Shown piece by piece: positions 4,994 through 18,385 of a stretch of 64,000 bases of DNA. The DNA comes from Microbacterium trichothecenolyticum. Lineage in GTDB: Bacteria; Actinomycetota; Actinomycetes; Actinomycetales; Microbacteriaceae. Position 1 is the first letter of the stretch, and each line of letters opens with the position of its first letter. The notes below the pieces were generated by a model. It saw only the letters and a program-made list of their open reading frames with translations, did not search any database and had not been told where the DNA came from. The translations under genes and the position numbers were made by a program. The stretch covers positions 3,286,001 through 3,350,000 of the forward strand of contig NZ_JAUTBF010000001.1 in assembly GCF_030818955.1 (NCBI RefSeq), written 5' to 3'.

Positions 4994-5287
4994 ATGCAGT
5001 CCATCTCCATCCACGATCTGCACGCCGGACGCCAGCGTCCGCTCATCGACGTGCGTGAGGAGCACGAGTTCGCCGCGGGCCACGTGCCGGGTGCCGTGAA
5101 TCTGCCCATGTCGACTCTCGGCGATCACCTCGACGAGCTTCCCGCCGAGCCCTTCGACGTGATCTGCCAGGCCGGCGGCCGTTCCGCGCGCGTGGTCGAG
5201 GCGCTGTCCGCGCGCGGGCACGACGCGACGAACGTCGAGGGCGGCACGGGTGACTGGATCGCCGCAGGCTACGACGTCATCACCTGA
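4994..5287 (+). CDS. single-domain rhodanese-like protein
   Basis: This 97-residue rhodanese domain would carry a persulfide on its active cysteine, C58, in the loop CQAGGRS. Other family marks are the DVRE motif at about 19-22 and the GHVPGAVNLP segment. It is followed by a glutaredoxin-like gene and a Dabb gene, so a small redox or sulfur-handling group is plausible. The substrate is unknown. Most single-domain rhodaneses of this size are cytoplasmic, and no signal peptide is present. Confidence 0.9.
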   Translation: MQSISIHDLHAGRQRPLIDVREEHEFAAGHVPGAVNLPMSTLGDHLDELPAEPFDVICQAGGRSARVVEALSARGHDATNVEGGTGDWIAAGYDVIT

Positions 5288-5354
5288 TCGGCGCTGCCTC
5301 CACGATCCGCGTGTGTACCGGACTCGGGTGGTCCGTGCCTCATAGGATGGATTC

Positions 5355-5633
5355 GTGACCACCCTCACATTGATCGGGAAACCCGGCTGTCATCTGTGCG
5401 ATGTGGCCGAGCAGATCGTCGAGAGCGTCGTCGCCGACCTTCCCCCCGCCGTCGCCGATCGCGTCGAGATCGAGCAGGCCTCGATCGCCGACGACGTCGC
5501 GTTGTACGAGAAGTGGTGGGAGAAGATCCCCGTCGTCCTCATCGACGGCGAGCTGCACGCGCACTGGCGCGTCTCGGCCGACCGTCTCCGCGCCGCGTTG
5601 CTGGCGTCCGAGTCCCAAGGAGCCTCCGCGTGA
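5355..5633 (+). CDS. glutaredoxin-like protein with CxxC
   Basis: This 92-residue thioredoxin-fold protein has the N-terminal redox motif C12-HL-C15, followed by a helix and the cis-proline segment EKIPVVLIDGE near residues 55-65. It belongs to the glutaredoxin-family proteins with a DUF836-like pattern rather than the classical CPYC group. GTG 5355 is used because TAGGAT (5343-5348) ends 6 nt upstream. The stop codon overlaps the start of the Dabb gene (GTGA), which indicates translational coupling. Confidence 0.88.
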   Translation: MTTLTLIGKPGCHLCDVAEQIVESVVADLPPAVADRVEIEQASIADDVALYEKWWEKIPVVLIDGELHAHWRVSADRLRAALLASESQGASA

Positions 5634-13687: not shown

Positions 13688-14695
13688 ATGCCCGGAACCG
13701 ATCCGCTTCTCCTCGATGAGATCTCGCTCCTCCTGGTGTGGACGGCGGTCGCCATCTACGTGTTGGCGTTCATCGCCTACGCCATCGACCTCGCGCGTCG
13801 GTCCGACCTCGCGCTGAAGGCGAAAGACGAGGTCGTCGCCCGCGAGCTCGTGACCGCGGGCGGCGGGGGAGTGATCTCGTCGGGCGCCGGGTCGTCGGCA
13901 TCCGGGACCACCGCCAAGCCCCGCTACCTGTGGGCCCGTCTCGGCGCCGTGCTCACGGCGCTCGGGTTCGTGTTCCACCTGGCCGCGACCGTCCTGCGCG
14001 GCGTGGCGGCCGAGCGCGTGCCGTGGTCGAACATGTACGAGTTCGCCATGACCGGGCTGCTGCTGATCGTCGCGGTGTACCTCGCGGTGCTCACCCGCTA
14101 CGACCTGCGCTTCCTCGGCTCGCTCATCACGGGCCTCGCGGTGCTGCTGCTCGGCGGGGCGACGCTGGCGTTCCACGTCGAGGTCGTGCCGCTGGCCGAC
14201 CCGCTGAAGTCGGTGTGGCTCGTCGTGCACGTGTTCGTCGCGAGCCTGGCGACGGCGCTGTTCGCCCTGGCGTTCGGCCTGTCGGTGGTGCAGCTGATCC
14301 AGACGCGACGCGAGCGCAAGCTCGCCGAGGCGCCCGCGGATGCCGAACCGAAGCGCAGCTTCCTGCGCACCGTGCCGAACGCCGACGCGCTGGAGTCGCT
14401 GGCGTACCGCTTCGCGATCGTCGGCTTCATCTTCTGGACCTTCACCCTCATCGCCGGCTCCATCTGGGCCAACGACGCGTGGGGCCGGTTCTGGGGCTTC
14501 GACACGAAGGAAGTGTGGACCTTCGTCATCTGGGTGCTCTACGCCGGATACATCCACGCCCGCGCCACCCGCGGCTGGCGCGGCACCCGTTCGGCGTGGC
14601 TGTCGATCATCGGCTTCGCCGCGGTGCTGTTCAACTTCACGATCGTCAACGTCTTCTTCAAGGGCCTGCACGCTTACAGCGGCCTGACGACGTAG
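13688..14695 (+). CDS. ccsB: c-type cytochrome biogenesis protein CcsB (CcsA/ResC family)
   Basis: This 335-residue membrane protein is the haem-handling partner of ResB. The tryptophan-rich haem-binding segment WGRFWGFDTKEVWTFVIW is near residues 265-282, a variant of the WWD signature, and conserved histidines lie in flanking loops. TAGACT (13676-13681), overlapping the ResB stop, ends 6 nt before the ATG, so the gene may also have its own leaderless promoter. It is the last gene of the operon. A palindromic repeat lies 27 bp after the stop. Confidence 0.93.
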   Translation: MPGTDPLLLDEISLLLVWTAVAIYVLAFIAYAIDLARRSDLALKAKDEVVARELVTAGGGGVISSGAGSSASGTTAKPRYLWARLGAVLTALGFVFHLAATVLRGVAAERVPWSNMYEFAMTGLLLIVAVYLAVLTRYDLRFLGSLITGLAVLLLGGATLAFHVEVVPLADPLKSVWLVVHVFVASLATALFALAFGLSVVQLIQTRRERKLAEAPADAEPKRSFLRTVPNADALESLAYRFAIVGFIFWTFTLIAGSIWANDAWGRFWGFDTKEVWTFVIWVLYAGYIHARATRGWRGTRSAWLSIIGFAAVLFNFTIVNVFFKGLHAYSGLTT

Positions 14696-14721
14696 GGCGC
14701 CCGTGCGCGCCTGCCCGGTTC

Positions 14722-14782
14722 GTTGAGTGTCTAAAACACGCAGCACCGGGCCTGGCCCCAACGGCGTGTCGTGGACACTCAC
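14722..14782. repeat. 61 bp palindromic repeat, family A copy 1
   Basis: Inverted arms GTTGAGTGTC...ACACGC and GCGTGTCGTGGACACTCAC surround a short GC-rich centre. It lies just after the ccsB stop. The same element occurs at 14845 and 15878; this copy has the most mismatches. Confidence 0.8.
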
Positions 14783-14844
14783 GTGTCGCTGCGGCGCGGG
14801 CCGGGGCGGGGCTTTCGCGACGCGCACTCCTGACGCGCACTCCT

Positions 14845-14906
14845 GTTGAGTGTCCAGGACACGCCGTGAAGCGTCGGGCCGCAACGGCGTGTCGTGGACA
14901 CTCAAC
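14845..14906. repeat. 62 bp palindromic repeat, family A copy 2, containing the DUF559 stop codon
   Basis: The 23 bp arms match at 22 positions: GTTGAGTGTCCA-GACACGCC on the left, and the reverse complement on the right. Read on the minus strand, the TTGA at its edge supplies the TGA stop of the DUF559 gene (CGT TGA). Confidence 0.88.
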
Positions 14907-15777
14907 GAGCGAGGGCTCGGCGCACCGGGCCGACGATGTCGTGCTGCGGTGCGGTGAGGTGGTGGGCGACGACGCGGATCAACGTCCACCCCTCCTCCGC
15001 GATCGCACGCCAGCGGTCGGCGTCACGTCGGAACTGCTCGGGATCCGCGTGCTGACGCCCGTCGTATTCCACGGCGACACGGTGCTGCGGATACGCCATG
15101 TCGAGTCGCGCGACGAACGTGCCGGTGTGCGTGCGGAGCGTCCAGTTGAGCTCGGGCTCGGGAAGGCCTGCTCGAACCAGGATGCTGCGGACAATGCTCT
15201 CGCGTGGTGACTCCGATCCGGGTCGCACGAGCGCCGCTGCCTCGCGGAGAGCGATCGCACCGCGACGGCGTGCGGTGAGGGCGACGGAGTCGAGCTCTGC
15301 GCGGGAACCTCCGTGCGAGAGGATCCAGTCGCCGGCCGCCACGAGATCCTCGACGCCGAGTGACTCGCCGAGCTGCGCCCAGGTTGCGACGCGCGACGCA
15401 ACGGGAAGGTCGCCCAGCAGGGTGATCTCGTCGCCGCAGAGGGCGAGTCGGTGACCGATGACATCGCGTGTGCGGGGCTCACGGGCGGGCGGTACCGCGC
15501 TGATGTGGAGCGCGGTGCCGGGCGTGGGGGGAATCGGCATCCCCCACAGTGCCGCCGAGGTGGCATGGCTGAAGAACTGACCGCCGTTCATCCTCGGGAG
15601 GTATGCACGGCATCGGTCGGCGACGGTCTCGAGCGGGTCGGCCCCGGTGTGGCGTACGCCGTGAAAGGGAGCGCGCACGTCTGTCGCCGAGAACCTTCGG
15701 CGGGGGATGCCGAAGCGGTCGGCGTCGCGGATATGGAACGGTCGATCGAACTCAGCGGGGAGCGGGCGGGGCTGCAT
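14902..15777 (-). CDS. DUF559 (Vsr-like/PD-(D/E)XK) nuclease-domain protein
   Basis: This 291-residue protein ends in a DUF559 domain related to very-short-patch repair endonucleases. The likely active-site set is D226 in RLDMAYP, E237 and D239 in VEYDGRQH, and H243, followed by the GWTLIRV segment (about 263-269). The N-terminal half (about 1-130) resembles the winged-helix and linker region found in actinobacterial DUF559/AbiEi-like proteins, but this is a weaker reading. The gene is bracketed by palindromic repeats at 14722, 14845 and 15878, and its stop codon lies inside one of them. No methylase or other restriction gene is adjacent. Function and target are unknown. Confidence 0.85.
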   Translation of the reverse strand: MQPRPLPAEFDRPFHIRDADRFGIPRRRFSATDVRAPFHGVRHTGADPLETVADRCRAYLPRMNGGQFFSHATSAALWGMPIPPTPGTALHISAVPPAREPRTRDVIGHRLALCGDEITLLGDLPVASRVATWAQLGESLGVEDLVAAGDWILSHGGSRAELDSVALTARRRGAIALREAAALVRPGSESPRESIVRSILVRAGLPEPELNWTLRTHTGTFVARLDMAYPQHRVAVEYDGRQHADPEQFRRDADRWRAIAEEGWTLIRVVAHHLTAPQHDIVGPVRRALAR

Positions 15778-15877
15778 GACGATATGAGACAGCCCGCCAC
15801 GACCCGGCCGTCGCAGACCCCTGCCCGCCCTGTGGAGCCACGCTCTGTGGAGGAGCGGTCCCCGTCCGCAGCCCCCC

Positions 15878-15939
15878 GTTGAGTGTCCACGACACGCCGC
15901 ACGATGCGGGGTGCCTACGGCGTGTCTTGGACAGTCAAC
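15878..15939. repeat. 62 bp palindromic repeat, family A copy 3
   Basis: It begins GTTGAGTGTCCACGACACGC and ends GTGTCTTGGACAGTCAAC. It lies 17 bp beyond the stop of the YhgE gene and about 100 bp upstream of the DUF559 start, so the DUF559 gene is bracketed by copies 2 and 3. Confidence 0.85.
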
Positions 15940-15955: not shown

Positions 15956-18385
15956 TCAGGCCACGGGGAGGCGGGCGGGGCGGGCCGACGTCGTGCGGCG
16001 GCGCACCACGATCAGCGTCGTGACCACGAGCGACAGCACGGCCCAGATCACGAATCCGGCGATGCCCGCGACCACGCCGCCCGATGACGACAGGGCGCCG
16101 AGCATCGCGGAATACACCGGCGCGGTCGGCAGCAGCGAGGCCGCCGCGGCCAGGGCGGGCGGTACCGTCGAGACGATCGTCGCCGCCAGGGCGAGGGCGC
16201 CGACGATCGCGGCGATCCATCGACCGGCGCCGCCGAACACGGCGACGAGCGCCTGGTGCACCGCCGCGAACGCGATGCCGGCCGCGACGCAGATGAGCGC
16301 GAACAGCGCCCAATCGCCCCAGTCGTACTTCGACGCGATCTGAACGACCCCGGCGACCAGCAGGCCCTGCACGGCGCCGACGGCGGCCGCCGGCAGGAAA
16401 CCGCGCAGCGCGACCAGCGCCGACGGACGACGGCTGGTCAAGGCCCGCGCCGAGACGGCCTGGAAGGCCACGAACGACGCGAGACCGCCGAACCACAGCA
16501 CGGCCATCGCCAGCAGAGGGACCGCGGCGAGACCGAACAGCGAGTTGCTCGCTCCGGTCGTCGACACCGGGTCGGCGACGACGGCGGCGAGGCTGGCAGC
16601 CTGGGCGTCGGTGTAGGTCGGCAGGGCCTTGACGGCGCTGTCGAGGCCGTCCGCGAGAGACGACGTGCCGGATGCCACCTGCCCGACGCCGTCGGCGAGC
16701 TGGCCGGCGCCGGTCTCGGCGTCGGAGGCCCCGGATGCCAGCTGCGACGCTCCTCCCGCAGCGGTCTGTGCTCCGGCGGCCAACTCCGACGCTCCGCCGG
16801 CAGCGGTCTGTGCTCCGGTCGCCAGCTGCGATGCTCCGCCGGCGGCGGTCTGTGCTCCGGTCGCCAGCTGCGCGGCGCCGTCGCGCGTCTGCGCGAGTCC
16901 GCCGGCCAGCTGCGATGCGCCGGAGCTCAGGGTGTCAGCACCCGTTCCCAGTTGCCGCGCCCCGTCTCCGATGCGGGTCGCGCCCGTGGCCAAGCCGTCG
17001 ACGCCTCCCGCGATGGTGTTCAGGCCGGATTCCGCATCGCGGGCGCCGCTCGCCAAGCCCGCGGCGCCGTCGGCCAGTTTCGCGTTGGCGTCTGCGATCG
17101 CACGCACACCGGCGGGCAGCTGCGCCGCCTGCCCTGCGACGCGCCCGATGTCAGCGACGGTCTGCTGCGCTGCCGGGAGCTCGGCGTTGGCGCGGTCGGA
17201 CGCTGCACGCAGCTGCGCGCACAGTTGCGGATTCGCGGTGGTGTCGCAGGAATCGGCGAGGCGTTGCAGGTCTGCCGCGGCCGTGCCGAGAGCGTCGCTG
17301 ACCCGTGGGGCGGCGGCGGCCACGTCGTTCGCCGTCTGCTCGAACCCCGGAGGGATGGCATCGGCGATCTGGCCGACCTGATCGGCGAGCTGGCGATTGC
17401 CCGAAGCGATGTCGTCGGCGCCGCTCGCGAGCGTGCCCACGCCGGCTGCGGCATCTCGGGTGCCCTTCGCGAGCTCGGTGGCGCCATCGGCGAGCTGCGT
17501 GGCGCCGTCGGCGATGCCGGCGGCCCCTCCCGAGAGTCGACCCACCCCGTCGGCGAGCTGGTCTGCGCCGGTGGCGAGTCGTCCCACGCCTCCCGAGAGC
17601 TGGTCCGCGCCCGTTGCGAGGCCACCCACGCCGCCGGCGAGCTGGTCTGCGCCGGTGGCGAGTTGCCCCACGCCTCCCGAGAGTTGGTCCGCACCCGTCG
17701 CGAGCTGTCCTACGCCGCTCGAGAGCGCACCCGCGCCGCTCGAGAGCTGGCCCAAACCGTCGCGCAGCCCGCTCGCTCCCGTCGCGGCCTGCCCCGCGCC
17801 GTCGGCGAGCTGGTGGGCGCCGCTCGCGGCGGTACCGAGCTGGTCGCTGAGCGAGGTGAAGCCCAGGAAGACGTTCTGCAGGTACTGCGATGACAGCTCG
17901 CTGCCGAACACGCTCGAGGCGGTGGATGCCAGTTGTGCGGTGATCGCGCCGTCGACGACGCGGGCGTCGGGGGCCGTCACGACGCCGATGGTCGCCTTCT
18001 CGGGCGTCTCGCCCGGGCGGGTCGACAGCGACGCGGTCGTGAAGTTCTCGGGGATCGTCACGACCGCGGTGTAGGTGCCGTCGGCGAGGCCCGCCGCGGC
18101 GTCTTCGTCGTTCGAGATGATCCAGTCGATGTTGCTCGGCTGGTCGTCGGCGCCCTTGACGAGACCGCCGGTGAGCTGGCGGCCGAGGGGGACGAGCTGA
18201 CCGTCGAGCTCGACGGCCTTGTCGTCGTTGACGATCGCGGCGGTGATGTTGTCGAGCCGCTCTGTCGGGTTGTACAGCGCCGCCACCAGGATGCCGCCGA
18301 TGACGGCGGGCAGCAGCAGCACGCCGAGCAGCGTCAGCCAGGTGATGGGACGGCGCGAGCGGGAGCGCTCGACGGGGAGAGTCAT
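15956..18385 (-). CDS. YhgE/Pip family membrane protein
   Basis: This membrane protein of about 809 residues has the YhgE/Pip layout: one N-terminal helix (LLGVLLLPAVIGGILVAALY), a large external region, and five or six C-terminal helices. The external part is filled with imperfect 14-residue repeats such as LATGADQLSGGVGQ and LATGAQTAAGGASQ, likely extended coiled-coil or helical stalk. Homologues act as phage receptors or form part of type VII or MMPL-linked export systems. The start ATG overlaps the stop of the upstream MMPL gene (ATGA), so the pair is co-translated. A longer reading from 18694 is an extension into the MMPL gene and is rejected. Confidence 0.88.
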   Translation of the reverse strand: MTLPVERSRSRRPITWLTLLGVLLLPAVIGGILVAALYNPTERLDNITAAIVNDDKAVELDGQLVPLGRQLTGGLVKGADDQPSNIDWIISNDEDAAAGLADGTYTAVVTIPENFTTASLSTRPGETPEKATIGVVTAPDARVVDGAITAQLASTASSVFGSELSSQYLQNVFLGFTSLSDQLGTAASGAHQLADGAGQAATGASGLRDGLGQLSSGAGALSSGVGQLATGADQLSGGVGQLATGADQLAGGVGGLATGADQLSGGVGRLATGADQLADGVGRLSGGAAGIADGATQLADGATELAKGTRDAAAGVGTLASGADDIASGNRQLADQVGQIADAIPPGFEQTANDVAAAAPRVSDALGTAAADLQRLADSCDTTANPQLCAQLRAASDRANAELPAAQQTVADIGRVAGQAAQLPAGVRAIADANAKLADGAAGLASGARDAESGLNTIAGGVDGLATGATRIGDGARQLGTGADTLSSGASQLAGGLAQTRDGAAQLATGAQTAAGGASQLATGAQTAAGGASELAAGAQTAAGGASQLASGASDAETGAGQLADGVGQVASGTSSLADGLDSAVKALPTYTDAQAASLAAVVADPVSTTGASNSLFGLAAVPLLAMAVLWFGGLASFVAFQAVSARALTSRRPSALVALRGFLPAAAVGAVQGLLVAGVVQIASKYDWGDWALFALICVAAGIAFAAVHQALVAVFGGAGRWIAAIVGALALAATIVSTVPPALAAAASLLPTAPVYSAMLGALSSSGGVVAGIAGFVIWAVLSLVVTTLIVVRRRTTSARPARLPVA
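16740..16880. repeat. 42 bp in-frame tandem repeats in the YhgE gene (block 1)
   Basis: About three near-identical 42 bp units encode the 14-residue pattern LATGAQTAAGGASQ. They are part of the coding sequence. Confidence 0.7.
17550..17760. repeat. 42 bp in-frame tandem repeats in the YhgE gene (block 2)
   Basis: About five units encode variants of LATGADQLSGGVGQ. Alternate units share up to about 40 bp, enough to allow recombination or slippage by whole repeats. Confidence 0.7.

What the first reader, a model, noticed from the sequence alone, without database searches (positions are those of the whole stretch)
14722..15939. DUF559 nuclease-like gene bracketed by three copies of a 61-62 bp palindrome, one supplying its stop codon
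Seen: near-perfect palindromes with arms GTTGAGTGTCCAnGACACGCCGT at 14722, 14845 and 15878. Copies 2 and 3 bracket the DUF559 gene, and its TGA lies inside copy 2 (CGT TGA, minus strand). Known: DUF559 is a Vsr-like endonuclease-fold domain; REP-type palindromes in other bacteria can be tied to a dedicated enzyme. Inference: the gene and the palindromes may be one unit, with the protein acting on or moved with the hairpin DNA. The alternative is that the palindromes are only gene-end terminators.
Basis: partly seen in the sequence, partly recalled or inferred. Interest (0 to 1): 0.72.

Follow-up and report, generated by a model that had tools for sequence, protein, structure and literature searches.

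The report
Nuclease gene with its own palindromes
In Microbacterium and many related bacteria, genes for a predicted DNA-cutting protein of unknown role are often bracketed by a matching palindrome, and in the cases followed that palindrome is also scattered across the genome, which suggests an unrecognised partnership between a nuclease and repeated DNA.

Summary
The window gene (14902-15777, minus) encodes an AbiEi-like DNA-binding region fused to a Vsr-like nuclease. Its palindrome, two 23-bp inverted arms 15-16 bp apart, has 42 copies in this genome, mostly at gene 3' ends. Within this genome the link looks weak: only three copies lie at a DUF559 gene. But other DUF559 paralogues have palindromes of their own. 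In an unbiased test, homologous hairpins lie on both sides of 31 of 47 DUF559 loci in the genus (control genes 0 of 172) and 24 of 40 loci from other genera of the order (controls 0 of 91). Palindrome type follows the protein tree. Of 149 genomes, 15 of 17 with the cognate gene carry at least 4 palindromes, against 2 of 132 without. The 23-bp inverted pair resembles published AbiEi operators. Best reading: a REPIN/RAYT-like partnership with an unrelated enzyme that binds both arms and maintains or spreads the palindromes. Binding, cutting and spreading are inferred. The gene keeps fixed loci, so 'moved with the hairpin' is not supported. No report of this link appeared in the literature listings searched.

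The parts
14722..14783 (.). palindrome copy 1 (degenerate; arms 16/23 complementary), 26 bp after the ccsB stop
14845..14906 (.). palindrome copy 2 (arms 22/23); supplies the TGA of the DUF559 gene
14902..15777 (-). DUF559-type gene, 291 aa: AbiEi-like residues about 2-185, Vsr-like nuclease residues about 188-291
15878..15939 (.). palindrome copy 3 (arms 20/23), upstream of the DUF559 start and 16 bp past the stop of the neighbouring ABC2-type gene
13688..14695 (+). flanking gene, cytochrome c assembly protein (ccsB-like); used as synteny anchor
15956..18385 (-). flanking gene, ABC2-type membrane protein; used as synteny anchor

Best explanation
The gene and the palindromes are one two-part system. 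A resident gene, kept at a fixed locus, encodes an AbiEi-like DNA-binding region fused to a Vsr-like PD-(D/E)XK nuclease. Its cognate sites are palindromes of about 55-62 bp made of two inverted arms (23 bp in the window's family) around a short loop. Protein molecules bind the two arms as double-stranded DNA, as AbiEi binds its 23-bp inverted-repeat pair. The nuclease then nicks or cuts at or near the bound element, and repair or copying maintains, homogenises and occasionally spreads copies to new gene ends. SHOWN: bracketing, matched subtypes, correlation of copy number with the cognate gene, folds, conserved nuclease residues, and presence/absence of copies at orthologous sites. INFERRED: binding, cutting, and that cutting drives spread or upkeep. 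Where the gene is absent the palindromes are few. The outcome resembles REPIN/RAYT with an unrelated enzyme.
Against: No binding, cutting or movement was observed. Insertion junctions or target duplications could not be read. Loops are unrelated between copies in this genome except tandem ones, so no recent copying event is visible. G072 (10) and G083 (6) keep palindromes without the cognate gene; G049 and G198 have the gene but 0 matches to the exact pattern, their bracketing palindromes being a GAGAGTCC variant. Gene-bearing G006 and G071 lack a family-1 palindrome at site 3205042, and G151 lacks it at two other sites, while gene-less G083 has one at 3201012. 16 of 47 genus loci and 16 of 40 order loci show no matched bracket; one clade of six shows none. 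A slight excess of arm pairing (641 v 627 expected, P 0.006; position 16 P 0.07) means a hairpin role is not excluded. Genomes are related, so counts are not independent; the 50 genus loci reduce to about 8 syntenic groups. One raw match elsewhere (L231) is generic terminators by eye. The AbiEi match is loose (5.7 A over 173 residues).
Confidence: 0.7

Rival explanations
1. Operator/regulon: the AbiEi-like region is a repressor, the 5' copy is its operator, and dispersed copies are further binding sites that regulate or block transcription. The nuclease domain plays no part in their spread.
For: AbiEi and Rv2827c bind 23-bp inverted-repeat pairs in their own promoters (PMC7319586). The 5' copy lies in the likely promoter region, median 133.5 bp upstream. 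Arms look like duplex-DNA sites.
Against: Dispersed copies avoid divergent promoter gaps (3 of 41 intergenic elements v 33% of bases in element-free gaps of the sampled loci) and prefer convergent gene ends (15 of 41 v 14%). A 3' copy just past the stop is a regular feature too. Nuclease residues are invariant. Neither immediate neighbour of the window gene is a DUF1814 toxin.
Confidence: 0.17
2. Gene-end terminators only: the hairpins end transcription and have nothing to do with the nuclease gene.
For: 38 of 41 intergenic elements lie next to at least one gene 3' end. Long GC-rich hairpins. At the ccsB end, a GGGCCCGTCCGGC-type terminator seen by eye in L088, L089, L092 and L094 is missing here.
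Against: 0 of 172 and 0 of 91 control genes have matched hairpins on both sides. 0 of 42 elements have five or more T in the 12 nt after, or five or more A in the 12 nt before. Arm sequence is conserved rather than pairing compensated. Families follow the protein tree.
Confidence: 0.04
3. Mobile cassette: gene plus flanking palindromes move together like a small composite transposon or homing element.
For: Bracketing on both sides; a Vsr-like homing-endonuclease fold; loci with and without the unit at the ccsB site.
Against: Within each clade the unit stays at the same syntenic locus, so absence at the ccsB site looks like loss; by eye G062 keeps palindromes and a deletion scar. The other DUF559 genes of this genome do not share the window palindrome: nearest copy 5.4 kb away, the next about 16 kb.
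Confidence: 0.06
4. Defence or self-marking: the nuclease attacks foreign DNA and chromosomal palindromes act as decoys, immunity sites or loading sites.
For: AbiEi and Vsr folds both occur in conflict systems (recalled). A weak AbiEi match in PADLOC for one relative, L141, E 1.1e-4.
Against: No defence partner among the two immediate neighbours. A scan of viral contigs listed 30 stretches with one palindrome each, which I estimate, without a control, to be chance level.
Confidence: 0.03

Closest known systems
REP/REPIN elements with RAYT (TnpA-REP) transposases
   Same: Dozens of extragenic palindromic repeats per genome, organised as inverted doublets with a spacer; a dedicated nuclease gene next to its own repeat type; enzyme and repeat co-vary (abstracts of PMC3116915 and PMC8266576).
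   Different: RAYTs are HuH enzymes that process single-stranded REP (abstract of PMC8266576). Here the enzyme has AbiEi and Vsr-like folds, no Y1_Tnp is found in the genome, no GTAG borders the element, and the arms behave like duplex binding sites.
AbiEi antitoxins and their operators (S. agalactiae AbiEi, M. tuberculosis Rv2827c)
   Same: N-terminal region has the AbiEi fold; the site is a pair of 23-bp inverted repeats (PMC7319586, section 14).
   Different: Fused to a nuclease, no DUF1814 toxin immediately beside the window gene, sites on both sides of the gene and dispersed at gene ends; arms 15-16 bp apart rather than 3 or 13.
Vsr and Vsr-like homing endonucleases (I-Bth0305I)
   Same: Fold of the C-terminal domain, with invariant acidic residues and a histidine.
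   Different: Free-standing chromosomal gene at a fixed locus, not in an intron or intein; carries an AbiEi-like DNA-binding region.

Membership tests
REP/REPIN with RAYT | RAYT, a Y1 HuH transposase (PF01797), in the genome | tested here: not met
   0 matches at E<=0.01 in the own genome; the same search rings in 6 of 14 control genomes
REP/REPIN with RAYT | GTAG-type tag next to the palindrome | tested here: not met
   0 of 42 elements have GTAG before or CTAC after the end; 3 of 42 contain one of them somewhere inside
REP/REPIN with RAYT | many extragenic palindromes as inverted doublets | tested here: met
   42 doublets, 41 intergenic by my gene calls, centre spacing 39 bp (36) or 38 bp (6); 84 of 87 arms with up to 4 mismatches are in doublets
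REP/REPIN with RAYT | dedicated enzyme gene bordered by its own repeat | tested here: met
   31 of 47 and 24 of 40 loci v 0 of 172 and 0 of 91 controls; the enzyme is not a RAYT
REP/REPIN with RAYT | enzyme cleaves the repeat | not testable with these tools
   needs biochemistry
AbiE type IV toxin-antitoxin (AbiEi) | AbiEi fold in the N-terminal region | tested here: met
AbiE type IV toxin-antitoxin (AbiEi) | adjacent DUF1814 AbiEii toxin gene | tested here: not met
   the two immediate neighbours of the window gene are a cytochrome c assembly protein and an ABC2-type protein
AbiE type IV toxin-antitoxin (AbiEi) | 23-bp inverted-repeat operator upstream | tested here: inconclusive
   a 23-bp inverted pair lies 100 bp upstream of the ATG; binding not tested
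Vsr-like endonuclease | Vsr fold with conserved nuclease residues | tested here: met
Homing endonuclease | gene inside an intron or intein, splitting its own target | tested here: not met
   free-standing gene between two other genes, with whole palindromes on both sides
MITE of an insertion sequence | target-site duplication and a shared internal sequence | tested here: inconclusive
   loops share no sequence except between tandem copies; insertion junctions not resolvable

The most novel reading that the evidence does not exclude
AbiEi-Vsr (DUF559) proteins are a second, HuH-independent class of palindrome-propagating enzyme in bacteria. Each protein clade creates, homogenises and sustains its own family of palindromes (23+16+23 in the window's case) at gene ends, and many of the unexplained intergenic palindromes of actinomycete genomes are sites of such proteins.
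Probability: 0.45. Interest if true: 0.88.

Novelty: new variant of a known kind. Interest (0 to 1): 0.77.

Why it matters
It gives a concrete, testable role to a common, uncharacterised actinomycete gene family (homologues in 191 of 248 genomes of the order sampled, E<=1e-15) and a likely partner for many intergenic palindromes. It also offers many natural protein/site pairs for learning a DNA-recognition code.

Tried and rejected
Clustering of the window palindrome beside all DUF559 genes of this genome: not seen. Three of 42 elements are at this gene; for the other eight DUF559-type genes the nearest listed arm is 5.4 kb away (641765 to the gene at 636145), the next nearest about 16 kb. RAYT as mobiliser: none. 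Rfam: no family; three matches up to E 1 in 5 loci, all far below gathering scores. A role in phages: the viral-contig scan listed 30 stretches with one match each, which I take as chance without a control. Composite transposon: no locus change seen within clades. Compensatory pairing of arms: positions 3, 7 and 14 independent, 16 and 23 with weak trends, small overall excess. A first hairpin finder lost some hairpins through a scoring fault and mis-set gene bounds at contig ends; replaced. Labelling families by short words left 15 of 50 rows 'none', some of which do have hairpins. PMC3710099 (two passages) only gives the origin of the MTES_1575 name. PMC3733652 (word search within it): no mention of Microbacterium or Actinobacteria. 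A GIY-YIG gene amid another palindrome family in G071 failed the bracket test as set up.

Full report
Observation. The three palindromes and the gene are as described, except that copy 1 is degenerate (16 of 23 arm pairs). Each element is 62 bp: two inverted 23-bp arms around 16 nt. The gene's TGA lies in copy 2. The genome is one 3.74-Mb contig; 72 of the 80 best named hits to the protein alignment are titled Microbacterium, several M. testaceum.

Genome-wide picture. The arm with up to 3 mismatches occurs 81 times (reversed control 0) in the own genome. Pairing arms gives 42 elements at 31 places, centre spacing 39 bp (36) or 38 bp (6). Loops share nothing except between tandem copies. By my simple gene calls, 41 of 42 are intergenic, 38 of those 41 have a gene 3' end on at least one side, 15 lie between convergent genes and 3 between divergent genes; element-free gaps of the sampled loci give 14% and 33% of bases. 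In 6 of 42 the palindrome supplies a stop codon. No element is followed by a T-run (0 of 42). No Y1 transposase was found.

Is the link to DUF559 real? The genome has 9 DUF559-type genes by two searches; the window palindrome lies only at this one. By eye, two of the others (L076, L077), and probably a third (L074), have hairpins of a different shared family on both sides. One of these families, CACGCATAAACGCG, has 85 half-sites genome-wide (reversed control 0), including both flanks of the paralogue at 3413961-3414731. At the ccsB locus in 30 genomes (the own included), 12 loci have the DUF559 gene: 10 show palindromes on both sides, and for the other two (L090, L095), which end just past the gene, the wider loci L120 and L119 show both sides. 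Of the 18 loci without the gene in view, 17 show none by the window-consensus scan; two of these (L096, L097) are cut short, and L097's genome, G026, has the gene on another contig. A looser pattern finds one family-1 palindrome at that site in G192 (L110), and other families are visible elsewhere. The exception is G062 (L094), with palindromes and, by eye, a deletion scar.

Unbiased test. I took the 30 best-placed loci of a genus-wide protein search plus 20 of the weaker hits (50 loci), looked for hairpins in 450-bp flanks and asked whether a left and a right hairpin are homologous. Of 47 loci with both flanks, 31 pass (the window's own among them); of 172 control genes from 400 kb of the own genome, none. 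Without asking for hairpins, a flank-to-flank match of score 16 or more is found at 32 of 47 loci and at 4 of 172 controls. A named set of 80 loci, partly the same species, gives 46 of 76, at least one of which (L231) is generic terminators by eye. In an order-wide sample of 49 loci, 4 of 9 in the genus, 5 of 7 in other genera of the family and 19 of 33 in other families pass; 0 of 91 control genes from 20 genomes pass, 19 of these genomes being among those tested. Anatomy is regular: the 3' copy starts a median 13.5 bp from the stop, the 5' copy ends a median 133.5 bp upstream (n=32); outer length median 58 bp. The 50 genus loci fall into about 8 syntenic groups, 7 of which contain bracketed members (my count).

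Co-variation. On the protein tree the palindrome label needs 11 changes against 27.8 in shuffles. Within the window's clade, subtypes also match: ACACCCGGA for L123/L124, ACACGCGGA for L125/L126, GAGAGTCC for L128/L129, GCCGAGTGTCC for L130/L131. All 13 palindromes listed for G047 (of 23 counted; two are the bracketing copies themselves) carry GCGG, where 41 of 42 elements here have GCCG. Exact family-1 palindromes (at least 4) occur in 15 of 17 genomes with a clade-1 gene (best hit E 1e-71 or better, plus G052's partial one) and 2 of 132 without. Among the closest relatives (ccsB at least 94%), six with the gene have 24-72 and five without have 0-10 (G015 is only 86% complete, and G072's ccsB contig ends early). 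A second family, GTCCCACTT, occurs in 32 of 149 genomes, reversed control 0; its copy number was not tested against its gene.

Orthologous sites. At 3205042 in 11 genomes, G000 included, four (G000, G023, G151, G019) have a family-1 palindrome, G023 with its own subtype; G057 and G072 have 25 and 29 bp and no palindrome; G015, G062, G071, G083 and G006 have other sequence, although G071 and G006 carry the gene. At 3196314, G057 has only the left arm and a similar loop, and G151 and G083 have none. At 3201012, G151 and G083 have palindromes with other loops and G057 none. At 3195192, G057 and G151 have none. Copies are thus gained and lost while flanking sequence stays about 81-90% identical.

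Interpretation. I conclude that many such proteins have a cognate palindrome and, with less certainty, that the protein sustains it. How is inferred: binding by the AbiEi-like region, then nicking or cutting. REPIN/RAYT is the nearest analogue in outcome (abstracts of PMC3116915 and PMC8266576 read), but the enzyme class, the lack of a GTAG tag and the probable duplex recognition differ. It is therefore not a member of that family.

Literature. Listings were seen for: DUF559 with palindrom (2 papers, unrelated), DUF559 (14), MTES_1575 (4), AbiEi with palindrom (39, 10 listed), AbiEi with inverted repeats (7), Microbacterium with palindromic repeat (4), REPIN with RAYT (18, 10 listed), REP with Actinobacteria and endonuclease (5), GIY-YIG with palindromic repeats and REP (31, 10 listed). 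None listed reports this link. The library lacks most subscription papers.

Noticed in passing
L288 (G071 C3), reverse strand 5134-5481: A GIY-YIG-like ORF lies among palindromes of another family (GGTCCCTTCGACAAGCTCAGGGACC), at the gene end where this genome has a window-type palindrome; possibly another nuclease/palindrome pair. The name is from my reading of the motif, not from a family search.
   Followed up: partly
window 14696-14721 v L088, L089, L092, L094: Four relatives have a GGGCCCGTCCGGC..GCCGGGCGGGCC terminator after ccsB that is missing here, where palindrome copy 1 stands instead.
   Followed up: no
own genome C1:335561-3559694: Window-type palindromes are unevenly spread: one of 31 places lies between 1.11 and 2.33 Mb.
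   Followed up: no
L109, L111, L112, L113 (after ccsB): More palindrome families with no assigned partner stand at the same intergenic place in other Microbacterium genomes (for example GACCCGTCAGAAAACGCGGC in L112).
   Followed up: no
L098 (G052 C65): The clade-1 DUF559 gene appears truncated (match to residues 135-289 only) while palindromes remain on both sides.
   Followed up: no
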